From NCBI RefSeq assembly GCF_006151785.1, contig NZ_VDDD01000012.1:1-44752 (forward strand): a stretch of 44,752 nt of DNA, written 5' to 3'. Source of the stretch: Paracoccus marcusii. GTDB lineage: Bacteria; Pseudomonadota; Alphaproteobacteria; Rhodobacterales; Rhodobacteraceae. The translations under genes and the position numbers were made by a program. This document shows positions 10,322 through 42,103 of the stretch, piece after piece; the first letter of the stretch is position 1, and every line of letters begins with the position of its first letter. The notes beneath the pieces were generated by a model. The model had not been told where the DNA came from. It was given only the letters and a program-made list of their open reading frames with translations, and did no database searches.

Positions 10322-11779
10322 TCAGCGCCGTCGGATTATTCGACCCAACACGCGGACCGGTGCACTCACGCGCCATGACGTGCTTGACAGAAACTCCTGG
10401 CGCTGCGCGGCTATCTGGCCGCGCAATGCCTCAATCTCGTTCCTGGACTGCTCCTGCTGCAGGCGCGCGGCCTCGGTTGCCGCGTTGCGCTCCTGTTCCA
10501 GCTGCTCGGCACGTTTCGACATTGCCAAAGTGTCGCGACGGATCGCAGCCAAGGTGGCGTCACGGTCGATCAGGCGGTCGGTGAGCATGTCCAACTCTTG
10601 CAGCTGTCGGGCCTGCTGGGCCTCGGCCTCCGCTTGGGCTTTGCGAACAGCATCGCGGTCACGTAAGGCCTCGTCGCGAGCCTGGCTGGCAGCGTCGCGA
10701 TCTTGCAAGGCTTTATCTCGGGTTTGGCTGGCGGCGTCGCGTTCGCGTAAAGCCTCATCGCGTGCCTTGGTGATCTGAGTAAGGTTTTCGTCCAGCATGG
10801 CCTTATCCTTGCTTGCTTGGGTCAAGCGCGCCTCGAGCGCAGCCTTTTCCGTTTTAAGCGCCTCTTCCCGCGCACGCGTTGGCGCCAGCTGTGCAGAGCG
10901 GCTTCTCAGAGCTTCCATTGCCCCTGCAAACAGCTCCTCGGCCTGATCGAAGGCTGTAGTGATACCATCTAGCCGAGGGTAATCCTCAACCTGCTCACCT
11001 TGAGCGACCCACCGCTCCAGGATCTCCAACGTCTGGCGGACTAGCTCTGGCACACGAGCATCCTCCAGTGCAGCCCGTGCACCGCTATCATGATGGCGAA
11101 GAGTACGGTTAACTCGTCCTGCCCCAGCTTCGACCGGCCGTGGCCAAGGAAAACCGAAAGCCGTCTCAGCAGCTTCGGCGACTGCAGCGGGATCGTGCAG
11201 TAGCGTTTCGTAGGAGGTGAAGTGCCGCGTGTGCCCGCGGCTATGACGCTCAGCCTGTAATACCTGCGATGCCCAAGCCAGCAGCGACAAACCGGGATCA
11301 ATTCCATCGCGTCGTTGCAGTGATGCTGCGATCTCAGAGGGACTGCGATGGGTGTGTAGATAGACGCTATGGTAACCTACTGCTTGGAGAACTTGCTGCC
11401 AGAATGGCAGCAGCATGCTGATGCGAGGGTCTTTTAGATAGATCAGCGAGCTGTCACCATATTCGGCCTTGATCACGTTGCATGCCTTGTCATGGAACTC
11501 GGCGAGGCGAGGCGAAAGGTGAACGTCGGAGCGCAGCGGGCGCCAATCATCCCACCGTGAGCCTAAGGCAGTAAGGATCGAATCATTCAGTCTAAAGACC
11601 GGCAGTGACTCGAAATAGCCTGCGGCATTCGCGTCCGTCCCCGGCATCGGCGTCGCCGGCCCGCGGCAGCCCAGCCCGTCCAGCATCCCTGCAAGCGAGG
11701 AGGTCCCCGAACGGTGCATTCCTAGGACGATGACCGCCACCCGTCCGGGGCGGTCCATGATCGGTGCGTCGTTCATCAT
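10322..11779 (-). CDS. Sulfotransferase-family protein with C-terminal coiled coil
   Basis: 485 aa. Residues 14-35 hold the phosphosulfate-binding loop VIVLGMHRSGTSSLAGMLDG of the PAPS-dependent sulfotransferase fold, and THRSPSEIAASL near residue 145 is the second (3'-phosphate) contact. About residues 1-260 are the catalytic domain. About 285-455 are a long coiled coil that includes three 14-residue repeats, and the end reads STSWRVSAPVRVLGRIIRRR, a tail seen on many surface-glycan glycosyltransferases and probably membrane-associating. The first ATG overlaps the stop of the glycosyltransferase gene upstream (ATGA), so the two are coupled. Likely role: sulfate or related transfer onto the glycan made by the neighbour, or a non-catalytic partner. 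Base composition is lower in GC than the structural genes. Confidence 0.8.
   Translation of the reverse strand: MMNDAPIMDRPGRVAVIVLGMHRSGTSSLAGMLDGLGCRGPATPMPGTDANAAGYFESLPVFRLNDSILTALGSRWDDWRPLRSDVHLSPRLAEFHDKACNVIKAEYGDSSLIYLKDPRISMLLPFWQQVLQAVGYHSVYLHTHRSPSEIAASLQRRDGIDPGLSLLAWASQVLQAERHSRGHTRHFTSYETLLHDPAAVAEAAETAFGFPWPRPVEAGAGRVNRTLRHHDSGARAALEDARVPELVRQTLEILERWVAQGEQVEDYPRLDGITTAFDQAEELFAGAMEALRSRSAQLAPTRAREEALKTEKAALEARLTQASKDKAMLDENLTQITKARDEALRERDAASQTRDKALQDRDAASQARDEALRDRDAVRKAQAEAEAQQARQLQELDMLTDRLIDRDATLAAIRRDTLAMSKRAEQLEQERNAATEAARLQQEQSRNEIEALRGQIAAQRQEFLSSTSWRVSAPVRVLGRIIRRR
10645..10772 (-). repeat. Three 42-bp tandem repeats in the coiled-coil region
   Basis: Three imperfect in-frame copies encode the units KARDEALRERDAAS, QTRDKALQDRDAAS and QARDEALRDRDAVR, exactly 14 residues each. 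Such repeats can change copy number by slippage and so alter the length of the stalk of the sulfotransferase-family protein without breaking its frame. Confidence 0.75.
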
Positions 11780-14700
11780 CTTACCTGCCGGATGAGAGTC
11801 TGCGGGTTCTGAGCCTGCAAGACCTGTAGCTGCTGCTGTTTCTCCAGCATACGCTGACGTATGATTGCATGATGAATGGGACGTGCAACAGCAAGAGCAC
11901 CTGCGCGGGTAGCAATCGCCTGCTCTAATTGCCCCACTTGATCAGCTCCTGTCCAAACGCTGGATGGATTAAGGCGATACACCCCCATCACCTTGTCGAT
12001 AAATCCGATCTTTCCAATTCTGTCGAGATAGAAGGCTAAGGCAATCTCGCTTAAGCGCGGATGATAAATTGATGATGGTAGGCCCAGCAGCATGCTACGC
12101 TGGAACATCATAGATGAGAAATTAACGATAAGGTTAAGATGCTGGTTTAGCGTGAAATGTTCGCCGGTCAGTAGTGACGGCAGGTCGTCCTGACGTTTGA
12201 GTACACGGCGACTGTTTTTGGCCATGTCAAACAGCTCGATTCGAGAAAAAACCGCACCCGCATCGGGCTGGTTGGCTAGGAAATCAGCCTGGCGCGCGTT
12301 CTTCTCCGGGTCGGTCCAATAGTCATCACCTTCTAGGATGGCGATGTAGTTACCCGCTGCCTCTTTGAAGCAATGTTGATAGTTGGCCGAAACGCCTAGG
12401 TTGCCGCCAGTGCTGATGTTGCGAATAAGTGTTGGATATCGCGCAGCATAGCGCGCCATGATCCGCGCCGTCCCGTCCGAGGATCCATCATCAGCCAACA
12501 GGATCTCATGAGTGAAGTCGCCGCGCTGTTCTAGCGCGCTCTCGATGGCCTCAACGATAAATTCCTGATGATTGTAGCTAAGAATTGCTGTGGACACTGT
12601 AGGGCGCGGTGAGTGCTTGCTATGTACTGCGACCTTAGCCCGCAGAAAGGATTCACGGACCGAAATGCGGTCAGTACTTTGTCCCATTTCGTCGTCGCTG
12701 TAGTCCAAAAATACGCGTGGTAAGAATACCGGATCCTGATGTGCGGTTAGTCGGATTATCAAATCCCAGTCCACCAGACGACGTAGATCTGGATCAAAAC
12801 CACCAAACCGCTGGATCAGCGATTTCCGATGTGCAAAGACGCCAAGGTCAATGTAATTGCCTCTAAGTATATCACTTCGGACGAAGCTATTTCCTACTAC
12901 AAGACCAGTGCTGCGATTGATGATCTGACCAAAGAAGCAATCCTTCGCAGGGTGCTCGACAATTGCATTTGCGATTACAGTTAAAAAGTTGGGCCGCAGC
13001 TGATTGTCGCTGTCTAAATAGGTGATCCAGTCGTGACGCGCATGGGCAATACCAACGTTGCGCGCCCCGCATACGCCAGTTGCCTCTGCCAAACGTACAT
13101 ATCGGATCGTGCCGTCCTCTATCTGATTGCCAAAATCGCGATCGATAATTTCGGCCGTGTCATCATCCGACCCGTCATCAACAATGATTAGCTCAAAGTT
13201 TCGATGGGTCTGGCGCAGTGCCGAGCCAATGGCCTCCGAGATGCACCAGCCACGGTTACGCGTCGGCATAATCATTGAAAAGCCGATGCGTCCAGTATCC
13301 TGGAACCGAGCAATAGTGAAATCGGCTAGAGCGGTCTTATGAACTTTAGGGGCGTTCTGGAACAGCCACTCTAGTGTGAGATCTGAACCTTCTGCATTAC
13401 TTTCAGAATGGCGCAGCGCTTTGGCCTTAATTAAAGGCAGCCCCAACTGCATCGCAGTGATCGGATGTTCGGCAATGTTACGATAGGTTGGGTCGAGGGG
13501 ATGTACGCCCTCTAACCGATTTTCGACCATCGCACCCCAACTGTATCCTGCCCCGGCCAGTATCTTCGTCAGCCCAATCTCGTATTTTTTTATAACCTCG
13601 TGAACATTAGGCTGCTTTGTGATGCTGCCTATAAACTCGCGGAAAGTTGGCGACTGGAAGACATGCCAACTAAGCACCACGAAGTAGCTTTGCAGATGCG
13701 GATGGATTTCTTGGCTGTCCGTAGCACCCCAAAAATCCAGATGTCGCCCATCCATGTGTGTGAACATGGGTGCGAAACTACCTACTGGTCCGAAGCAGCT
13801 ATCGTTGCATAGGATCAAGTCGTCTGCATCATCCAACCAGCCTGCATCACGGGCCCAAGCCTCGCCGCGTTTGTAGGAGCCGAAGTCGTATTCGCCATGT
13901 CTTCCGGTGATCACATGGTCGGCCAGTCCCAACAGACAGGCGCGCTGATCGGGGGCGAGGTCGTTATCGCAGACCACTACGATACGCTCGACCAGTGGAC
14001 GTAGGCCTTCAAGATACGGCTGTACCTGAGGGGGCAGCACCCCGTCTGCGCTGTAGCTTGCGAAAACCGCGACCCGACGGCGCATTGTCACTTTGCTACT
14101 GCGTTGGCGACGGCGGCGTGCAGCCTCCAGATCGGTTAGGGTATCTGTAATAGGAATGCGCTCGCGTGACAGACTAGCCGGAAAGCCGGGTACAGGCTGT
14201 GGCAGGGACGCGCTGTCGCGCTGATCGGTAAGCAGCACGATACCTCCGTCGATAGCAACCAACATACCGAACATACGTTCAAGTACATGGGCGGGCGTTC
14301 CGTCATCGGCATAGGAGCCAGGCTGCCAGTCGATCTGCAGCGCTTTGAGCCGCAGCAGAATGCTAGTGCGGATCCAGAAGCAAGTGCCTGCGACAAAGCC
14401 CCAGTCTTGGCTTCGAAAGTCAAATCCCTGCAGCAACGATCCCGCCAGTTCATCAATTCCGCCAGCATTCCGCCATAGATAAGCTGGGCCATAGAGGAAC
14501 AGCTGCCGCGCGCCTGCCAACATTACCTGCGGATCGTCGCGAAAGCCCGCGATTATCATGTCCACTTGCCGGCGCGATCCAAGCACGCCACCTAGCAGCG
14601 TGCGCCGCCAGGCCTCTGGCATTTTGAGGCCTTTCTTGGAATGGATCTTACAAACAAAGTCGTAGTGGTCCAAGTCTACTTGGTCCATCAACTGCATCAG

Positions 14701-14958
14701 CGCGCCGACATCTTGGCCCACATTACGCACCGCGACCAGATGCGCTCCGACAAAGCAATCGGCGATACGCTTACGATCCTCGAACGGGAGACTATCAGCA
14801 AAAGTCACGAACCGGTCAGCCCCTGCCGGAAAATTCTCGCAGGCCGCGGATAGATCTTCCATCGTGTCCAGATGCCAAACATGGACAATCAACGCGAACG
14901 CACCGGAAGCGCTGTCGGTGGGTGTAGGCAAAGTCAGGTCTGGAGTATCTTCAGGCAC
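11776..14958 (-). CDS. Multidomain surface-polysaccharide glycosyltransferase (RgpF-like plus two GT2 domains)
   Basis: 1060 aa from a GTG at 14958 with AGGAG ten bases upstream. Domains in order: rhamnan-synthesis-F-like region (about 20-500, with IVHVWHLDTMEDLS, RNVGQDVGALMQL, VCKIHSKKG and later GEYDFGSYKRGEAWA, LILCNDSCFGPVG); first GT-A/GT2 domain (about 559-760, FSMIMPTRNRG, VDDGSDDDTAEI at 593-604, LDSDN at 648-652); second GT2 domain (about 787-1000, STAILSYNHQEF, ADDGSSDGTARI, EGDDYW at 875-880). Both GT2 domains keep the nucleotide-sugar Asp motifs and look active. RgpF/GT2 fusions build rhamnose-rich or O-antigen-like polysaccharides on undecaprenyl or lipid carriers. Located on the opposite strand to the phage structural genes with lower GC; a lysogenic-conversion role is inferred. 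Confidence 0.88.
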   Translation of the reverse strand: MPEDTPDLTLPTPTDSASGAFALIVHVWHLDTMEDLSAACENFPAGADRFVTFADSLPFEDRKRIADCFVGAHLVAVRNVGQDVGALMQLMDQVDLDHYDFVCKIHSKKGLKMPEAWRRTLLGGVLGSRRQVDMIIAGFRDDPQVMLAGARQLFLYGPAYLWRNAGGIDELAGSLLQGFDFRSQDWGFVAGTCFWIRTSILLRLKALQIDWQPGSYADDGTPAHVLERMFGMLVAIDGGIVLLTDQRDSASLPQPVPGFPASLSRERIPITDTLTDLEAARRRRQRSSKVTMRRRVAVFASYSADGVLPPQVQPYLEGLRPLVERIVVVCDNDLAPDQRACLLGLADHVITGRHGEYDFGSYKRGEAWARDAGWLDDADDLILCNDSCFGPVGSFAPMFTHMDGRHLDFWGATDSQEIHPHLQSYFVVLSWHVFQSPTFREFIGSITKQPNVHEVIKKYEIGLTKILAGAGYSWGAMVENRLEGVHPLDPTYRNIAEHPITAMQLGLPLIKAKALRHSESNAEGSDLTLEWLFQNAPKVHKTALADFTIARFQDTGRIGFSMIMPTRNRGWCISEAIGSALRQTHRNFELIIVDDGSDDDTAEIIDRDFGNQIEDGTIRYVRLAEATGVCGARNVGIAHARHDWITYLDSDNQLRPNFLTVIANAIVEHPAKDCFFGQIINRSTGLVVGNSFVRSDILRGNYIDLGVFAHRKSLIQRFGGFDPDLRRLVDWDLIIRLTAHQDPVFLPRVFLDYSDDEMGQSTDRISVRESFLRAKVAVHSKHSPRPTVSTAILSYNHQEFIVEAIESALEQRGDFTHEILLADDGSSDGTARIMARYAARYPTLIRNISTGGNLGVSANYQHCFKEAAGNYIAILEGDDYWTDPEKNARQADFLANQPDAGAVFSRIELFDMAKNSRRVLKRQDDLPSLLTGEHFTLNQHLNLIVNFSSMMFQRSMLLGLPSSIYHPRLSEIALAFYLDRIGKIGFIDKVMGVYRLNPSSVWTGADQVGQLEQAIATRAGALAVARPIHHAIIRQRMLEKQQQLQVLQAQNPQTLIRQVR

Positions 14959-26638: not shown

Positions 26639-26983
26639 ATGGCCACTATTGTCAAAACGTCCATGGGCGGCCCCGGTCAGCGGCCCGTGACGGAGGTCAC
26701 CCTGACCGCAACGAACGTGCTGACCTACGAGCCCGGCACCGGCCAGGTGCTGATCCTGCGCAACCCCACGGCAGGTGCGGTGTCTCCCGTCATCGACGGA
26801 GCGGACGGGACCACCGTCAGCTACCCCGGCGCGCCGAACATCTCCGTCGCGGCGGGCTTTGCGGTCGGTGCGATCCCGGCCGGCGGCGTCGTGGCCGTCC
26901 CGCTTGATACCATCTCGGCCTACCTGCAGGGCGCCATCAACGTGACCGGCACCGGCCTCGTTGCCGTACTCCTGGGGAACTGA
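26639..26983 (+). CDS. Small structural protein, paralogous to the N-terminal domain of the 36350 tail protein
   Basis: 114 aa starting MATIVKTSMGGPGQRPVTEV. The sequence is a beta-rich single domain with VLILRNPTAGAVSPVIDGAD and VPLDTISAYLQGAINVTGTG. Residues 1-112 align without large gaps to residues 1-112 of the 864-aa protein at 36350 (sharing LTATN, LILRNPTA, FPGAP/YPGAP, IPLDT/VPLDT, GLVAVL), clearly more than half identical by eye. The domain may therefore dock on a common virion surface. Located between tail terminator and tail tube. Confidence 0.75.
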   Translation: MATIVKTSMGGPGQRPVTEVTLTATNVLTYEPGTGQVLILRNPTAGAVSPVIDGADGTTVSYPGAPNISVAAGFAVGAIPAGGVVAVPLDTISAYLQGAINVTGTGLVAVLLGN

Positions 26984-26985
26984 TC

Positions 26986-27288
26986 ATGGCGAGCATCACC
27001 AACAACACCCGTGAGGCGGTGATCCTGCCGACCGGACACACCGTGGCCCGGCTGGGCCGCCTTGAGACCACGAACGCGGTCCTGCGCAGTGCCGACAATC
27101 TCCGCACCATCACCACCATGGTCGCGGCCAGGATGATCGACATCGAGTACGACCCCGACCCGATCGAGGAAGCCGCCGAGGCCACCGCGTCGGTGATCGA
27201 TGCGCCGGACCGCAAGCCGTCTCCGCAGATCCCGCTCTCCCCCACCGAACGGGCCGCCGCGCCTGCTGAAACCAAGAAGGACGCCTGA
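26986..27288 (+). CDS. Hypothetical protein in the tail-tube block, 100 aa
   Basis: MASITNNTREAVILPTGHTV begins the product; three beta strands (TGHTVARLGRLETTNAVLR) precede a flexible acidic and Pro/Ala-rich tail (EEAAEATASVIDAPDRKPSP). The ATG follows the preceding stop by two bases. Small beta proteins between terminator and tube are common but uncharacterised. Function unknown. Confidence 0.65.
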   Translation: MASITNNTREAVILPTGHTVARLGRLETTNAVLRSADNLRTITTMVAARMIDIEYDPDPIEEAAEATASVIDAPDRKPSPQIPLSPTERAAAPAETKKDA

Positions 27289-35914: not shown

Positions 35915-36288
35915 TCGACTGGAGCCAGGTCGTCACCGCCGAGCAGCAGCAGGGGACGGATCGCCAGGCGCTGCGCGATCTGATCGCGTTCCGCCGCCAT
36001 GAGGCGATGTGCGCCGGGATCAGCATCGCGGGGATGTCGGTCGCAACCGACGACGTCAGCCAGACCCGTTTCGCCGGGGCCGCCGTCAGCGCCATGCTGG
36101 ATCCCGGCTATGCCGTCCGATGGAAGACCGGCGACGGATCGTTCCGGCTGCTGTCCGGTGCCGAGATCATCGCGATTGCCTCCGCCGTCCGGGCGCATGT
36201 GCAGGCGTGCTACGACCGCGAGGCCGACCTGCTGGCAGCACTGGACGCGGGCGAAGCCGTCGATCCGGACACAGGCTGGCCCGGCTAG
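35911..36288 (+). CDS. DUF4376-like tail protein, 125 aa
   Basis: Starts MIDWSQVVTAEQQQGTDRQA. Its pattern AEQQQGTDRQALRDLIAFRR followed by GAAVSAMLDPGYAVRWKTGD and LLSGAEIIAIASAVRAHVQA and ending AALDAGEAVDPDTGWPG is that of DUF4376, a small tail-tip domain usually encoded between fibre genes. Helical. Coupled to the previous gene (ATGA). No catalytic residues. Confidence 0.7.
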   Translation: MIDWSQVVTAEQQQGTDRQALRDLIAFRRHEAMCAGISIAGMSVATDDVSQTRFAGAAVSAMLDPGYAVRWKTGDGSFRLLSGAEIIAIASAVRAHVQACYDREADLLAALDAGEAVDPDTGWPG

Positions 36289-36349
36289 AGCAGCCCGCCC
36301 GACCATCGCGACTACCACCCTGCGAGGGGCACAATCACCGAGAGGGGCC

Positions 36350-38944
36350 ATGGCCAACATCATCAAGACCTTCGTCGGGGGGGCCGGTGCGCGGCCCGTC
36401 ACGGAAATCGTCCTGACCGCCACCAACGACCTGACCTATGAGCAGGGAGCGGGTCACGTGCTGATCCTGCGCAACCCGACCGCGGCATCGATCGACTGCG
36501 TGCTGCGCGGCGCTGACAGCACGACCGTCAATTTCCCCGGCGCACCGTTCATCTCCGTCGCCGGCGGCTACTCCACCCCCGTCCCGGCCGGTGCCGTCCG
36601 CGCCATACCGCTCGATACCGTGGCCGCCTATCTCAAGGGCCCTGTGGCCGTCACCGGTGTTGGCTTGGTCGCGGTGCTGATGCGCGCGGTGAACGGGCGT
36701 GGCGCCAGGTCCATTTTCAACGATCCCCCGGCGGCCGTGCCGGGCGAGGTCGTGGTACCGACTGCGCCAGCAGCCTTCGCGACCGGCGATTGGTCGGTGG
36801 CGACCGGCCCGGCCCCTAACCGGGTGGTGATCACCGTCAACAACCTGCCGAACGACGGTGGGTCCCCCATCACCGCTCTGCAGTACAGCAACGGCGGCAC
36901 CTGGACGAACCTGAGCGGCACGGGTGTTGGCCAGTACGTACTCGACATGCCTGCGGCGGGTACCGAATACCCGATCCGGATCCGAACCCGGAACGCCATC
37001 GGGATCAGCGGGCCCGGCGTGACCAAGACAGCAACCAGCGGGGCGGCTGACACCTCAGCACAGCGCGTTATTCTGGTAACTGACTACGCCGGCGATTGCG
37101 ATGACGCTCCCGCCGTACTGATGGCTTGTGACGCTCACGAGCGAGGCGACATCAGCCTGCTAGGTATCGTCGCCTCATCGACGGTGGCGACATCAGCCCC
37201 TGGCGTCTATGGGCAGCTGGCTGCGTACAACATGACCAGCATCCCGGTCTATGCGTACCAAGGCGCCATCGGAACGTACAACAACCGGATCAGCGCCCCC
37301 GTTCGGGATCGGTTCGGTATGGCGGGACAGACCCGCACAGCATTCCCGGATGACGTGACTGGACTGCGCACCATGCTGGCGGCAGCGCCGAACGCTTCGG
37401 TGAAGATCATCGACGTGGGCGCACCCATTTCCACCTCGCGACTGCTGGACAGCCCTGCAGATGCCATCTCGCCCATGACGGGGCGTGAACTGGTCGCGGC
37501 CAAGGTCGTCGGCCTGTGGATGATGGCGGGCGAGTTCACCAGCACCCGCGTCGAGTACAACGCGGATCGCGATGTGGCATCGACCCAAAACGTCTATCAG
37601 ACGTGGCCAACGCCTATCTATGCTCACGGCGCTGAAGTCGGCGGAACGGTTCTTACTGCGCCGATGGCAGATGCAGACCCGTTGATCGACCCGGTTAAGG
37701 TGGCATTCGACGCCTTTGATGCCGCCTCGCCCTCATCTCTGCAGATGTATCTTGGCCGCAGGGCGCGGTGGTCGTGGGACCCTATCTGCGTCCATCATGC
37801 AATCTACGGCAACCAGAACCTGTACAATCTGGCGGGCGCGAACGGAACTATCACGGTTTCTGGAACCGGGGTCACTAGCTGGTCGGCTACGCCAGCGGGA
37901 AACAAGTCGTATGTTGGCAAGGTGGCATCAGACGCGACCATCGCCGCGGCAATACAGTCGATCATCGACAACACCACCGTCATGCAGAACCTTGACGCCA
38001 GCGTTCCGGCGCAAGTGGCTCAGCCTTCGGTCAATGGTACCACGTCCACCCGCGCAATCTCATGGACAGCCCCCGCCAATGGCGGCAGCCCGATCCTTTC
38101 CTACACCATTCGCCGCAATGGCGTGACTGCCGGGACTGTGGCGGGGAACATCCTGTCTTTCACCATCGAGAACATCCCGGATGGCACTCATACAGTCACG
38201 GTTTCGGCAACGAACCAGCGGGGCGAGGGCCAGCAGTCTACGGCGCGGGAGTTCACCGTTGAACCGGCTGGAGCAGTGACGCCGACTAATGTCGCGTGGC
38301 CGCTTCAAGAGGGGTCTGGCGTTGCTATCAGCAGGACCGGAACCCAAGCCGACATAGTTGGCCCTGTGTGGGAAGCCTCGCCGGCGCGGATTACATTCAA
38401 CGGAACGTCTCACTACGCATTCTCCCCGCCGCCTGCCGTGGCAGACCGGGGGACCGATTACGTCCTTTCGGCTCTGGTCAGGCTTACAAACGTGACGGGA
38501 ACGCGGTGCATCCTATCGAGAAACGGGAACGTTTCGGCCACAACTCGCGTGTTCCAGTTCCGGTCGAATGGTGGTGCGCTGGAGTTTGTCTCGTCAACCG
38601 ACGCGGGCGCATCCGTGGTCGTTTCGGCGCCCGCAGGAACGGTTCCCATCAATACCTGGGTGCTGGTTTCGGCCTATGTCACCCTTACGGGCGTAGAGAT
38701 GCGGGTGAATGGCGATGACGTAGCGACCGGCGCATTTCCGGCTGAAAACCGATCCTCGGTAATTGATAACGTCCGCTACGAATGGGGCTGCCGCGTCAAT
38801 TCCTCGAACGGAAGTCGCACAGACTTCATGGCCGGATCAATGGCGGCAGTTGCCATCGTCAACTCAGCAACTGCTCAGACGCTGCCGGCTGTTGAAGCCG
38901 AACTTCGCGCCATTGCCACGGCCAAGGGCATCACCCTCCCATAA
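36350..38944 (+). CDS. Tail protein with nucleoside-hydrolase-like domain, FnIII repeats and LamG-like end
   Basis: 864 aa starting MANIIKTFVGGAGARPVTEI; ribosome site GAGAGGGG upstream. Domains in order: residues 1-115, a docking domain paralogous to the 26639 protein; about 137-232, a fibronectin III module (DWSVATGPAPNRVVITVNNL); about 238-545, a nucleoside-hydrolase-like fold opening with VILVTDYAGDCDDAPAVLMA (245-260), where D245, D249, D251 and D252 fit the Asp-rich calcium motif; about 552-640, a second FnIII; about 648-864, a LamG/concanavalin-like sandwich (WPLQEGSGVAISRTGTQADI). In the family the fold hydrolyses ribonucleosides; the same fold also occurs in surface proteins. Whether it is active or only binds a ligand is not decidable by eye. 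Confidence 0.78.
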   Translation: MANIIKTFVGGAGARPVTEIVLTATNDLTYEQGAGHVLILRNPTAASIDCVLRGADSTTVNFPGAPFISVAGGYSTPVPAGAVRAIPLDTVAAYLKGPVAVTGVGLVAVLMRAVNGRGARSIFNDPPAAVPGEVVVPTAPAAFATGDWSVATGPAPNRVVITVNNLPNDGGSPITALQYSNGGTWTNLSGTGVGQYVLDMPAAGTEYPIRIRTRNAIGISGPGVTKTATSGAADTSAQRVILVTDYAGDCDDAPAVLMACDAHERGDISLLGIVASSTVATSAPGVYGQLAAYNMTSIPVYAYQGAIGTYNNRISAPVRDRFGMAGQTRTAFPDDVTGLRTMLAAAPNASVKIIDVGAPISTSRLLDSPADAISPMTGRELVAAKVVGLWMMAGEFTSTRVEYNADRDVASTQNVYQTWPTPIYAHGAEVGGTVLTAPMADADPLIDPVKVAFDAFDAASPSSLQMYLGRRARWSWDPICVHHAIYGNQNLYNLAGANGTITVSGTGVTSWSATPAGNKSYVGKVASDATIAAAIQSIIDNTTVMQNLDASVPAQVAQPSVNGTTSTRAISWTAPANGGSPILSYTIRRNGVTAGTVAGNILSFTIENIPDGTHTVTVSATNQRGEGQQSTAREFTVEPAGAVTPTNVAWPLQEGSGVAISRTGTQADIVGPVWEASPARITFNGTSHYAFSPPPAVADRGTDYVLSALVRLTNVTGTRCILSRNGNVSATTRVFQFRSNGGALEFVSSTDAGASVVVSAPAGTVPINTWVLVSAYVTLTGVEMRVNGDDVATGAFPAENRSSVIDNVRYEWGCRVNSSNGSRTDFMAGSMAAVAIVNSATAQTLPAVEAELRAIATAKGITLP

Positions 38945-38962: not shown

Positions 38963-41900
38963 ATGCCCACCGCTAAAATCGCGGCGCGCCTCGGCACGAT
39001 CAGTGGCGAGAGCGCCCGCCCTTTCATCAACGCCTTCAAGCAGGCCTGGCAGTGGCAAGGCGGCCAGTCGTGGAGCGCCCTTGTCTCGGCAGGGCACGTC
39101 ACGGTAGGCGGCCAGCTTCGGTCGATCCCTTCCGGCTCAAACGGCTACAGCACGCGCGTGTTCCACAACATGCCTGCGCAGGCGGGCGGCTCTGGCCGCT
39201 GGCGGCTGCGGTGGGAAGGCTCAGCTGAATGGACCGTGAACGGCGGCCGAAACGTCACCCGCGCGCCGAACGAGATCCAGTTCGACTTCACTGCAAACGG
39301 TTCGTCCTGGATCGATCTTTCGGTCCGCAGCATCGACCCGGCCGGCGGGTTGGTACGCAACATCTCTCTGGTTCATCAGGATGACTGGGCAGACGCCGCC
39401 CGGGGCCGCATCTTCCGGCGACAGTACCTGACCGAGGTCGCGCCTTATCATGCCCTGCGGTTCGATGAATGGCTGGGCATCCTTACAGCCGAGCATCAGG
39501 GCGGCCTGAGCATCACGTCGTGGGAAAGCCGCCCGCTGCCCACAGACGAGATGTTCTACCGCTTCGTGCCCTACGAGTGGATGGCGGCGCTCTGCCGTGA
39601 GGTCGATGCCGACATGTGGCTGTGCCTGCCGACCGCGGCGACCGACGATCACATGCACCAGTGCGCAGCCCTGATCCGCGACCTGATGCCCGCGCCGCGG
39701 CAGGTCTATGTCGAGTACAGCACCAAGACCTGGGACTTCTCCGGCACCCCACAGGCGCACTACTGCGCCGCCCGGGGCCGCGAGGCCTTCGGCACCAGCA
39801 CCGGGTCCGAGTTCCGGAACTGGTACGGCATGTGGTCGGTACAGATGGCGCAGATCTGGCGGCGTGTCTGGGGCGGGGACGAGCGGCTGCACACCGTCGT
39901 CCAGCACCAGGCGGACTGGGTCGGCGGCGAGGCCGACATCCTGCTGGCGCCGCTGTGGCGGGACCGCAGCGGGACGCGAGGTCTTCCGGTCTACGTCGCG
40001 CCGCACTCGGTGATCGACATGCTGACCGTGCACGCGCAGATCGACGGCGGCATGGCCTATGGCGGCCGGGCCTCGCAGCTGGAGGGCTGGCGTACCTCCC
40101 TGTCACAGGGCGCGGCCTTCGACCGGATCCGTGACCAGCTGCTGACAGGCAACGCATGGGGCGCAGACCGCACGGTGCGTAGCATGGTGCCCAAGTGGCG
40201 GCACTACCGCACCGAGGCGTCGAAGTACGGCATGGAGCTGGGCGCCTACGAGGTCGGCAACCACATGAACGGTGTCGGCGGCAGCACCGCCTTGCGTGCC
40301 TTCATCCACGCCTTCTCAGTCAGCCCGCAGATGGGCGAGGTCTATGCCGCGACCTTCGCCGCTCTCGATGCCGCAGGCTTCGACGGGCCGCTGGCCATGT
40401 CGGTCGAATGCCGGATGCCCGACCAGAACATTATGCACGGCCTGCAGCGCTGGTTGGGCGACCGCAACCCGGCCTGGGCCGCGGTGCGGGCGCTGATCGA
40501 GGATGCGCCCGTCACGGTGCCTGAGCCGACGCCTGTGCCGGATAGGGAACCCATCCCCACGCCCGCGCCTGTTCCAGAGCCAATCCCCACTCCGGTCCCC
40601 GTGCCGATTGATCCAACCCCCGAGGAACCCGATATGAGTGCCCGCCAAAAGCTGACTGAACTCTTGAGCGTCCTTCAATCCACCACCGCAGACCTGCAAA
40701 CCTATCTTGCCGCCGATCCTGTTGGGACGCCGCCCGATGTCGTTCCGCCGGTGGTCCTTCCGGTCTCGCCGCCCGTCGCCGCACCGGCAGGGCCGATCTG
40801 GGACCAGTACAAGCAACCGGTTCTCAGCATTCCGGCGGAGATAACCGTGCCTGCCGGTTCGGCTGACATCTACATTCCCGTGTCCGTTGATCAGTGCGAC
40901 CGCAATTCTTTCATGGCGTACGTTGATCGTCTGGTGAACCTCACGGGCGGCAGCATCAACGTCGGGTCTGCGGACTCGCAACGCGCGAAGTTTGCCGGCA
41001 TGGACGTGGTGTATCACTGGTCCCCCGGTGACGATGTCCTGCACTGGATCAAGATCACGCCTCGCGACCGCCACGCCGACGGTCAGGCGTTCCAGGTCAG
41101 CATCCGGGTCAAGGGCCTCGGGGATAAGCAGAAGGGCCGTACCGTCAAGGTTCGCTTCTCTGCGGCAGTTCCCACGCAGGTCATCACGCAGCCGTTCCAC
41201 CGCCCTCTGCGCCGCCTGGACCTTTCCCGCGCGACACGCAAGAACACGTTCGACCCTGCCACGCTGACGCACAACCCGACAGGCGATGGCGGCGACTGGA
41301 TGTCTGCCCTGAGCCACGGGCGGTCGCAGGACGGCAACCAGGAGACGGGGCTCTATGCCGATGCTTCGATCGCAGGGGCAGACAATCCCATCAGCTACGA
41401 TGCTGCCGAGAAGGCGATCCGGCTGCATTCTGTTGGATATGCGAGCCGGGTAGAATGGGACAAGCGCAACTGGAGCTATCAAGCTGCTGTGCTTCAAGGC
41501 CTGCATCGGGATGATGTCTGCGGGGTCGAGGGGGTCTGGCGCATCGAGGCCAAGATCCCCGTGCGCCGCTACAGCTGGCCAGCGTTCTGGCTCGTCAATC
41601 GTTCCAAGGCCTCTGCCGGGTTCTACTACAGCCAGTGGCCCGGCGAGATCGACATCCTGGAGAAGTTCAACCATGCATGGGGCGCGGCTGATACACCCTA
41701 CACCAGCTCGTTCGCGCAGCATTTCGGTCCGATCAACGAATGGCAGAACAAGAAGGGCGCTTTTGGAAACGACTTCGAGGTCGACCAGTACGGCTCGCCT
41801 CGCACACCGCTGGACGAGGTCTACACATCCTGGGCGGTTCATGTGGCATACGATCCGGTGGATACCACTAAGTCAGAGGTCACGTTCTTCGTGAACGACC

Positions 41901-42103
41901 GCGAGGTGGGCTGCCAGATCCTGCACGCACGACACCAGGATCTGGCCCGCAAGATCGAGTTCTACCCGATCTTCAATGTCGCCGTGAAAACGCCGTCAGG
42001 TTACACTCCGGAGCGGTACAATACCGACGACGGGCGCGGCCGAACCGGTGACATGCTGGTGCGGGATGTGGCTTACTACTCGACGGGCGCACAGTTCACC
42101 TGA
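38963..42103 (+). CDS. Tailspike with GH-A-like domain and active-site-intact GH16 glycanase
   Basis: 1046 aa. N-terminal 140 residues form a beta capsule (MPTAKIAARLGTISGESARP). About 155-520 is a TIM-barrel glycosidase-like region; its usual acid/base motif (YSNExW) reads EYSTKTWD at 251-258, so it looks degenerate, while a later GAYEVGNH (E430) resembles the nucleophile region. A proline-rich linker (about 518-557) and a beta insert follow. About 800-1046 is a GH16-type concanavalin fold with WPGEIDILEKF at 893-902, where E895 (nucleophile) and E900 (acid/base) are in the GH16 order E-I-D-I-L-E. Such enzymes cut beta-1,3/1,4-glucans, galactans or related polysaccharides. Expected role: degrade host surface glycan during adsorption. 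Confidence 0.85.
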   Translation: MPTAKIAARLGTISGESARPFINAFKQAWQWQGGQSWSALVSAGHVTVGGQLRSIPSGSNGYSTRVFHNMPAQAGGSGRWRLRWEGSAEWTVNGGRNVTRAPNEIQFDFTANGSSWIDLSVRSIDPAGGLVRNISLVHQDDWADAARGRIFRRQYLTEVAPYHALRFDEWLGILTAEHQGGLSITSWESRPLPTDEMFYRFVPYEWMAALCREVDADMWLCLPTAATDDHMHQCAALIRDLMPAPRQVYVEYSTKTWDFSGTPQAHYCAARGREAFGTSTGSEFRNWYGMWSVQMAQIWRRVWGGDERLHTVVQHQADWVGGEADILLAPLWRDRSGTRGLPVYVAPHSVIDMLTVHAQIDGGMAYGGRASQLEGWRTSLSQGAAFDRIRDQLLTGNAWGADRTVRSMVPKWRHYRTEASKYGMELGAYEVGNHMNGVGGSTALRAFIHAFSVSPQMGEVYAATFAALDAAGFDGPLAMSVECRMPDQNIMHGLQRWLGDRNPAWAAVRALIEDAPVTVPEPTPVPDREPIPTPAPVPEPIPTPVPVPIDPTPEEPDMSARQKLTELLSVLQSTTADLQTYLAADPVGTPPDVVPPVVLPVSPPVAAPAGPIWDQYKQPVLSIPAEITVPAGSADIYIPVSVDQCDRNSFMAYVDRLVNLTGGSINVGSADSQRAKFAGMDVVYHWSPGDDVLHWIKITPRDRHADGQAFQVSIRVKGLGDKQKGRTVKVRFSAAVPTQVITQPFHRPLRRLDLSRATRKNTFDPATLTHNPTGDGGDWMSALSHGRSQDGNQETGLYADASIAGADNPISYDAAEKAIRLHSVGYASRVEWDKRNWSYQAAVLQGLHRDDVCGVEGVWRIEAKIPVRRYSWPAFWLVNRSKASAGFYYSQWPGEIDILEKFNHAWGAADTPYTSSFAQHFGPINEWQNKKGAFGNDFEVDQYGSPRTPLDEVYTSWAVHVAYDPVDTTKSEVTFFVNDREVGCQILHARHQDLARKIEFYPIFNVAVKTPSGYTPERYNTDDGRGRTGDMLVRDVAYYSTGAQFT

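What the first reader, a model, noticed from the sequence alone, without database searches (positions are those of the whole stretch)
37061..37984. Nucleoside-hydrolase-like domain embedded in a tail protein
The segment opening VILVTDYAGDCDDAPAVLMA carries the Asp-rich calcium motif of nucleoside hydrolases, in a virion protein between fibronectin modules and a LamG-like end. A phage tail enzyme of this type is unusual. It may hydrolyse extracellular nucleosides, or be a binding module that has kept the fold.
Basis: partly seen in the sequence, partly recalled or inferred. Interest (0 to 1): 0.62.

Follow-up and report, generated by a model that had tools for sequence, protein, structure and literature searches.

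The report
Nucleoside-hydrolase domain displayed on phage virions
A bacterial virus carries, on what is very probably a structural protein of its particle, a domain derived from a secreted enzyme that frees ribose from nucleosides, with its metal- and sugar-binding site largely intact, and a few other phages do the same, which suggests an unrecognised way for phages to grip or cut ribose-bearing molecules at the cell surface.

Summary
Window 37052-38005 (+), inside an 864-aa probable virion protein (36350-38944), encodes a nucleoside-hydrolase (NH) fold between an fn3-like module and fn3-LamG. Pfam's PF01156 does not score it directly. A profile of 59 cellular NH relatives alone finds it at E=7.9e-38, with 0 of 1000 shuffles hit. 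The AlphaFold2 model (63 sequences, pLDDT 92) superposes on Crithidia NH at Z=30.2, 2.7 A, 277 residues.

By alignment the Ca-ligand Asps and ribose-site Asp, Glu and Asn are kept. The catalytic His is Trp, as in group II NHs. The fingerprint is DXXXDXDD, the HopQ1 variant, not canonical DxDxxxDD.

It is not a one-off: eight distinct virus or prophage proteins fall on one supported branch (95/80); 6 of 8 keep the Ca Asps, 2 look degenerate; 5 of 8 show LamG evidence. The nearest cellular relatives look secreted (74 of 79), and 11 of 79 lie near sugar-transport or ribokinase genes.

Best reading: a virion-displayed riboside-binding, probably hydrolysing, module recruited from secreted riboside hydrolases for adsorption. 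Activity, substrate and particle location are untested.

The parts
36350..38944 (+). 864-aa probable virion protein: anchor - fn3-like - NH-like - fn3 - LamG (ATG start inferred; the ORF is open from 35999)
36350..36751 (+). N-terminal anchor module (134 aa as cut); its first 117 aa match, at 62% identity, the stretch 26639-26992 of the same contig
   Evidence: 95% identical in the sister prophage L015
36752..37051 (+). fn3/Ig-like module, similar to modules in a Paracoccus phage structural protein and a Desulfofustis phage major tail protein
   Evidence: 54% and 42% identity; PF00041 only 0.077
37052..38005 (+). nucleoside-hydrolase-like domain (318 aa)
37082..37105 (+). DYAGDCDD, Ca-site fingerprint (DXXXDXDD form): D11, D15, D17, D18 of the domain
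   Evidence: motif type from PMC3608555
37553..37561 (+). EYN, equivalent of the ribose-site E..N of NHs (E168, N170)
   Evidence: role by alignment and recall
37775..37780 (+). W242-D243: Trp in place of His, then the last Ca-ligand Asp
   Evidence: roles from PMC8910321
38027..38251 (+). fn3 domain
   Evidence: PF00041 E 3.2e-9
38402..38869 (+). LamG-like (concanavalin A-like) domain
   Evidence: PF13385 28.6 bits, cutoff 27.6
26639..26983 (+). stand-alone 114-aa ORF, paralogue of the N-terminal anchor (62%); no PHROG hit of its own; lies between tail terminator and major tail protein genes
38963..42103 (+). next gene, 1046 aa, with a GH16-like beta-glycanase region (EIDILE, motif recalled); possible depolymerase partner
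   Evidence: NCBIfam EglC E 7.1e-5, 21.9 bits against a cutoff of 700; no Pfam hit; no PDB hit

Best explanation
The segment is a nucleoside-hydrolase-fold domain displayed on the phage particle. It descends from a lineage of secreted bacterial riboside hydrolases and has become a phage lineage of its own, joined to different virion anchors and often to a LamG lectin-like domain. It most likely binds a ribosyl group on the host envelope through a Ca ion held by D11, D18 and D243 and ribose contacts from D17, E168 and N170, with W242 stacking on the leaving group, and probably cleaves that ribosyl bond during adsorption. Homology, predicted fold and retained site residues are shown by computation. 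Virion location is inferred from gene neighbourhood and anchors. Metal binding, catalysis, substrate and role in adsorption are inferred.
For: Homology: cellular-only profile E 7.9e-38 with clean controls. tblastn of the sister domain L015 finds three plasmid-borne relatives at 5e-24 to 5e-18, and all three pass PF01156 (55.6-73.5 bits, cutoff 34.2), as does the phage protein L138 (37.1 bits). Fold: pLDDT 92, pTM 0.92; the 50 Foldseek rows shown from PDB are all NH or NH-like; Z 30.2 to 2mas. Site: D11, D15, D17, D18, N170 and D243 identical in 63 of 63 rows, E168 in 58 of 59 and W242 in 55 of 59 cellular rows. Selection: window-L015 dN 0.29, dS 2.1, saturated; dS could not be computed for the other two pairs. 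Virion: tape measure, tail terminator, major tail and tail-fibre-type genes around it. In sister prophage L014 the same module is fused to a major-tail-protein-like N-terminus (E 3.7e-10) that is 94% identical to a separate open frame about 9.3 kb away in the same genome. L142 lies between major capsid and tail sheath genes, L138 among tail/baseplate genes and L052 among tail genes. Secretion and ribose context: hydrophobic leader in 74 of 79 relatives versus 3 of 27 canonical NHs; rbs-like genes in 11 of 79 loci; a Parabacteroides relative follows ribokinase and ADP-ribosylglycohydrolase genes. The variant fingerprint does not rule out activity: a later paper states that XopQ1 hydrolyses 2',3'-cAMP (PMC9963460, passages).
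Against: The first Asp of the fingerprint (D in 59 of 59 cellular rows) is Val here, and an Asn kept in 59 of 59 is Ser. XopQ, of the same NH-like type, is described as inactive on common nucleosides (PMC8910321), and no HopQ1 activity was detected on standard substrates (PMC3608555). Two of 8 phage relatives have lost Ca-site residues, and a third (L138) has Asp for E168 and Phe for W242, so the fold can persist with a changed site. No proteomics places any of these proteins in a particle. The model's alignment includes NH relatives, so the predicted fold is not independent of the homology. rbs neighbours are a minority (11 of 79), the count has no control, and NCBIfam transporter scores are below their cutoffs.
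Confidence: 0.5

Rival explanations
1. Catalytically dead ribosyl-binding module: the fold and metal site are kept as a lectin-like grip on a ribose-bearing receptor, without hydrolysis, next to a LamG lectin.
For: XopQ keeps Ca, binds ADP-ribose and is described as inactive on common nucleosides (PMC8910321); V9 and S127 depart from 59 of 59 cellular rows; L144 and Tunturi_5 gp338 have lost site residues; fn3/LamG company is typical of binding proteins (recalled).
Against: Ca-site Asps, E168, N170 and Trp-Asp are kept in the window, L001 and L015 domains despite 24-35% divergence; HopQ1 has Ala where the window has this Glu, and Tyr before the last Asp (PMC3608555; the correspondence of positions is my reading), so this site is more complete than HopQ1's.
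Confidence: 0.33
2. Scavenging enzyme on released particles or in lysate that degrades free extracellular nucleosides (or NAD/ADP-ribose) for the lysogen's or infected cell's benefit.
For: Cellular relatives look secreted and some sit near sugar uptake and ribokinase genes.
Against: Fusion to virion-type anchors, fn3 and LamG is not needed for scavenging; the DNA identity drop to a sister prophage covers this cassette, as is usual for host-contact parts (recalled).
Confidence: 0.09
3. Structural spacer or decoration domain: the fold is kept only for shape and stability of a tail or head protrusion.
For: Degenerate members exist; the module is joined to different anchors; the upstream fn3-like module is kept about as well (63%) as the NH domain (64%) against L015.
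Against: A spacer has no reason to hold the metal and ribose ligands in the window, L001 and L015 domains while its LamG partner falls to 29-33% identity.
Confidence: 0.07
4. Chance Asp-rich motif in an unrelated domain.
For: No direct Pfam, NCBIfam or named PHROG NH hit.
Confidence: 0.01

Closest known systems
Secreted-looking PF01156-type nucleoside hydrolases, mostly of Planctomycetota, Acidobacteriota and Verrucomicrobiota (genome loci L058-L136); also Parabacteroides L053 and Gemmatirosa L054
   Same: 24-31% identity to the window domain for the 59 genome loci in A6; same spacing DxxxDxDD and Trp (55 of 59) before the last Asp
   Different: Free-standing with a leader in 74 of 79; have the extra first Asp and an Asn (59 of 59) that the window domain lacks
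Rhizobium rhizoryzae 41-kb plasmid protein WP_165137779.1 (L052; 100% identical NH domain in IMG/VR L057)
   Same: NH + LamG among phage tail-type genes; NH domain 31-33% identical to the window's; RefSeq already names it 'nucleoside hydrolase'
   Different: Keeps the first Asp and the Asn; scores on PF01156 directly; no fn3 hit
HopQ1/XopQ effectors (NH-like)
   Same: DXXXDXDD fingerprint and aromatic (Tyr) before the last Asp in HopQ1; XopQ keeps its Ca site; fold Z 27.9-28.0
   Different: Injected into plant cells; HopQ1 lacks the ribose-site Glu by my reading; the A6 profile scores XopQ (31.4 bits) below NHs (54.9)
Group II purine NHs (Trypanosoma vivax IAG-NH)
   Same: Trp immediately before the last Ca-ligand Asp; fold (1hp0 Z 28.4)
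   Different: Metabolic enzyme with the canonical fingerprint (recalled); 13-15% identity
Tunturiibacter phage Tunturi_5 gp338
   Same: NH-like region in a protein annotated as virion structural, among tail genes
   Different: Ca-site Asp18 is Asn, Glu168 is Gln; weak match (tblastn 0.05; profiles 6.4e-5 and 1.7e-4); no Pfam LamG

Membership tests
Nucleoside hydrolase superfamily (fold and descent) | NH fold over the whole domain | tested here: met
   pLDDT 92 model, Z 30.2, 277 aligned residues to 2mas; a prediction, and the alignment used included NH relatives
Nucleoside hydrolase superfamily (fold and descent) | significant profile similarity to NHs | tested here: met
   cellular NH profile E 7.9e-38; A6 profile hits 20 distinct PDB sequences, all NH or NH-like
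Canonical nucleoside hydrolase (PF01156) | PF01156 score over the curated cutoff | tested here: not met
   no hit for the window protein or domain, nor for L001, L015, L014; relatives P0003 and L138 pass
Canonical nucleoside hydrolase (PF01156) | DxDxxxDD fingerprint | tested here: not met
   window has V-T-D-YAG-D-C-D-D: first Asp lost, two residues longer
Canonical nucleoside hydrolase (PF01156) | three Ca-ligand Asp residues | tested here: met
   by alignment only: D11, D18, D243; geometry and metal not measured
Canonical nucleoside hydrolase (PF01156) | leaving-group residue before the last Asp (His group I, Trp group II) | tested here: met
   Trp242 by alignment; groups from PMC8910321
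Canonical nucleoside hydrolase (PF01156) | hydrolysis of N-ribosides | not testable with these tools
   needs an assay
HopQ1/XopQ-type NH-like proteins | DXXXDXDD fingerprint | tested here: met
   DYAGDCDD or DFAGDCDD in the 3 window-type domains; motif from PMC3608555
HopQ1/XopQ-type NH-like proteins | closest sequence relationship to XopQ | tested here: not met
   NCBIfam XopQ model does not hit the window; A6 profile scores NHs up to 54.9 bits, XopQ 31.4
Sde182 NH-like (PF07632) | PF07632 score over the curated cutoff | tested here: not met
   no hit
Phage virion protein | detected in purified particles | not testable with these tools
   inferred from neighbourhood and anchors

The most novel reading that the evidence does not exclude
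A phage-specific lineage of the nucleoside-hydrolase fold has become a virion-borne furanosidase: with its LamG partner it finds and cuts a ribofuranosyl (O- or N-linked) decoration of the host's surface glycan, a receptor-destroying or receptor-trimming activity on a fold not, to my knowledge, counted among phage depolymerases.
Probability: 0.25. Interest if true: 0.82.

Novelty: new variant of a known kind. Interest (0 to 1): 0.62.

Why it matters
Virion enzymes known to me act on polysaccharides, peptidoglycan, acyl groups or sialic acids (recalled). A displayed ribosyl-recognising or ribosyl-cleaving domain would add a new chemistry to phage adsorption, point to ribose-bearing receptors, and give a direct, simple enzyme test. 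It also shows a metabolic fold captured as an exchangeable particle module, with intact and degenerate members in one family, and in at least one prophage a copy of the phage's own tail protein as its anchor.

Tried and rejected
AlphaFold2 with only window + L001 failed (pLDDT 29.1); the second job with 63 rows succeeded. The weak hit L003 in G019 (E 1.4e-4) has two stops and lies antisense among housekeeping-type genes by eye: rejected. G338 L013 (E 9.4e-4) was not followed. tblastn of the window domain alone in phage records gave one record, at E 4; of L015's domain, seven at E 7-10, not followed; of P0003, none at E<=0.1. NH-like hits among phage records with a canonical NH query (11 records, 10 of them without annotation) were not examined or counted. 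G215's weak PF01156 hit (L139) is in a 621-aa protein that by eye resembles secreted Sde182-type proteins; no phage genes were sought there. G1208 L051/L056 (E 9.7e-5) and G945 L055 are by eye free-standing cellular NHs. BFVD gave 4 hits at E<=1e-3, all giant viruses. Early hhalign with thin profiles was weak (58.5% for canonical NHs, 67% for the Sde182-like set) and is not relied on. The family is rare where sought: 2 of 125 genomes of the genus, and in the family and class draws only the window's own genome had a phage-type match; scans of viral contigs with L015 and Tunturi queries and the first genome-contig scan found no relative.

Dropped or limited: one search kept the best 80 of 492 relatives of the query, so the 79 cellular loci are a sample biased towards the query; A6 uses 59 of them. 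Trees use 33 and 22 cellular, 8 and 5 of 27 canonical, 6 and 8 phage rows. The neighbour pipeline recovered the NH itself in 69 of 79 loci and many flanks are cut by contig ends, so neighbour counts are rough. L143 is the same contig as L001, L137 the same as L057; L014 and L015 have the same NH domain; each counted once. Long branches (Tunturi_5, L144, G945, Parabacteroides) leave a single origin of the phage group likely, not shown.
Full report
WHAT IS THERE. The frame 35999-38944 (+) holds, from ATG 36350, an 864-aa protein. Pfam finds fn3 at aa 560-634 and Laminin_G_3 at aa 685-840, and no family within aa 135-552 at E<=0.1. Direct family searches of the domain fail: no Pfam hit at E<=10, no NCBIfam hit at 0.1, no NH among PDB chains by single-sequence search, and one unnamed weak PHROG hit (E 0.014).

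RELATIVES. A 77%-identical domain lies in an IMG/VR contig (L001). Another genome, listed as the same species (G285), has two places with one and the same NH domain, 64-65% identical to the window's, which I take for prophages. tblastn with that domain then reached three plasmid-borne relatives at E 5e-24 to 5e-18, two of them annotated as nucleoside hydrolase. One is on a 41-kb Rhizobium plasmid that carries terminase genes and whose NH domain is also in an IMG/VR virus contig (L057). The three pass PF01156, which closes the gap between the window and the NH family.

PROOF OF HOMOLOGY AND FOLD. A profile from 59 of these 79 cellular sequences, without any phage row, hits the window domain at E 7.9e-38 (132.7 bits). 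Of 1369 sequences tested, the only hits are the phage NH sequences given (window, L001, L015, L057, L138, Tunturi_5) and the window frame itself; 0 of 1000 shuffles and not the reversed domain. AlphaFold2 with 63 rows gives pLDDT 92.0, pTM 0.92. The 50 Foldseek rows shown from PDB are all NH or NH-like. VIA-align gives Z 30.2, rmsd 2.7 A over 277 residues to Crithidia NH with an inhibitor (2mas), and 27.9 to XopQ with ADP-ribose (4p5f). The A6 profile hits 20 distinct PDB sequences, all NH or NH-like. The alignment contains NH relatives, so model and profile are not independent.

THE SITE. Numbering within the domain (37052 = first base of residue 1). D11, D15, D17, D18, N170 and D243 are identical in 63 of 63 rows; E168 is Glu in 58 of 59 cellular rows; W242 is Trp in 55 of 59. 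The review PMC8910321 (outline with abstract, sections 2.3.1, 2.3.4 and 2.3.5, and passages) gives the Ca ligands as two Asp of the fingerprint plus one far downstream, and the residue before the last Asp as His (group I) or Trp (group II). The phage domain thus has a group II-like Trp. Its fingerprint DYAGDCDD is the DXXXDXDD form described for HopQ1 (PMC3608555, passages), where the first and last Asp of the motif and a late Asp are assigned to calcium and the one before the last to ribose; I carry these roles over by alignment. Departures: V9 replaces an Asp found in 59 of 59 cellular rows, and S127 an Asn found in 59 of 59.

A PHAGE LINEAGE. Eight distinct NH-like virus or prophage proteins were found: window; L015/L014; L001; L057/L052; L138; L142; L144; Tunturi_5 gp338. 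They fall on one side of a branch (95/80, 94% of bootstrap trees; 93/77 with six rows). Six of 8 keep D11, D18 and D243; of these L138 has Asp for E168 and Phe for W242. L144 has lost D18, D243 and E168; Tunturi_5 has Asn for D18, Gln for E168 and Tyr for W242. LamG evidence in 5 of 8: Pfam over cutoff in the window and P0003, under cutoff in L001 and L015/L014, BLAST only in L142. L138 and Tunturi_5 show no Pfam LamG hit; L144 was not tested.

VIRION CONTEXT. Around the window protein are the tape measure, tail terminator and major tail protein and tail-fibre-type genes. L138 lies between tail and baseplate genes, beside a GH5 cellulase. L142 lies between a major capsid gene and a tail sheath gene. 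L052 follows genes with tail-fibre and tail-assembly hits. In L014 the module's N-terminus scores as a major tail protein (phrog_13196, E 3.7e-10) and is 94% identical over 147 aa to a separate open frame about 9.3 kb away in the same genome. In the window the anchor is 62% identical to 26639-26992. So in both cases the module is joined to a relative of a gene of the same contig's phage region. DNA identity to the sister prophage L015, in 150-base steps, is 83-96% up to about 36,800, 54-73% from there to 38,000, 22-41% from 38,000 to 38,900 (the second fn3, which L015 lacks, and LamG), then 85% and 71%; blastn gives 90% from 38,883 on. At protein level the NH domain is 64-77% identical to L015 and L001, the upstream fn3-like module 63% to L015, and LamG 29-33%. 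dN 0.29, dS 2.1 between window and L015 (saturated; not computable for the other pairs) speaks for purifying selection.

WHAT THE CELLULAR RELATIVES DO. A hydrophobic stretch precedes the domain in 74 of 79 cellular loci against 3 of 27 canonical NHs (crude rule: an 11-residue mean Kyte-Doolittle of at least 1.8 within 70 residues upstream in frame). In 11 of 79 loci a neighbour belongs to one of four clusters that look like ribose-type binding protein, sugar ABC ATPase, ribose-type permease or ribokinase. Eight representatives were scored by NCBIfam: the two ribokinases pass a cutoff; the binding proteins, ATPases and permeases score well on several sugar-transport models but below their cutoffs. 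A Parabacteroides relative follows ribokinase and an ADP-ribosylglycohydrolase gene. This points, without a control for the neighbour count, to riboside cleavage outside the cytoplasm.

MECHANISM. Shown by computation: homology, predicted fold, retained metal and ribose ligands, a phage-specific lineage, modular anchors. Inferred: virion display, ribosyl binding, hydrolysis, role in adsorption. The next gene (38963-42103) has a weak GH16-type match, and L138's neighbour is a GH5 enzyme, so the NH protein may act with a glycan depolymerase. Hydrolysis and binding-only remain close rivals: the intact Glu/Asn/Trp favour hydrolysis; V9, S127 and the lack of activity on standard nucleosides in XopQ and HopQ1 favour binding, although another paper says XopQ1 hydrolyses 2',3'-cAMP (PMC9963460, passages).

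IN PRINT. Searches for 'nucleoside hydrolase' with phage tail (5 papers), with at least 3 of 4 terms incl. tail fiber, bacteriophage, virion (20 listed of 1,408), with prophage and tail (7), and for the long enzyme name with phage (9) listed no paper that, by title and start of abstract, deals with an NH in a virion protein. The one passage I opened (PMC9228384) lists an NH among phage metabolism genes. In the Tunturi paper (PMC11924767, passages) the words 'nucleoside', 'mass spectrometry' and 'ORF338' do not occur in the main text; gp338 was not searched for. The library holds only open-licence papers. RefSeq already labels the Rhizobium protein nucleoside hydrolase.

Noticed in passing
window 38963-42103 (+): 1046-aa neighbour with a GH16-like region (EIDILE; EglC E 7.1e-5, far below its cutoff; phrog_17064 over aa 603-1041) and an N-terminal part without any hit; possible depolymerase.
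   Followed up: partly
window 11776-14958 (-): 1060-aa RgpF plus GT2 glycosyltransferase on the opposite strand in the phage contig; perhaps changes the host's surface glycan in the lysogen.
   Followed up: no
L014:10041-12098 (-): In the sister prophage, a 685-aa protein with a GQSNA motif that recalls sialate O-acetylesterases (by eye, recalled).
   Followed up: no
L138:7890-9008 (+): GH5 cellulase (PF00150, E 1.2e-40) directly next to the NH protein of a phage with baseplate genes.
   Followed up: partly
G285 C1, about 1.75 and 2.06 Mb (L014, L015): Two prophage-like regions in one genome share 3.5 kb at 97% identity over the fn3-like/NH/LamG part and the first part of the next gene, with different anchors: recent exchange.
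   Followed up: partly
L053:7293-11822: Parabacteroides plasmid run of ribokinase, ADP-ribosylglycohydrolase, NH relative and a sugar transporter: a possible ADP-ribose/riboside use operon.
   Followed up: no
L139:7576-9441 (+): 621-aa NH-like protein in a genome of the window's genus, weak PF01156 hit; by eye Sde182-like with added domains.
   Followed up: no
L008:5116-6924 and L144:5323-6960: Both degenerate phage NH-like proteins begin with a leader-like hydrophobic stretch, unlike the other phage members (by eye).
   Followed up: no
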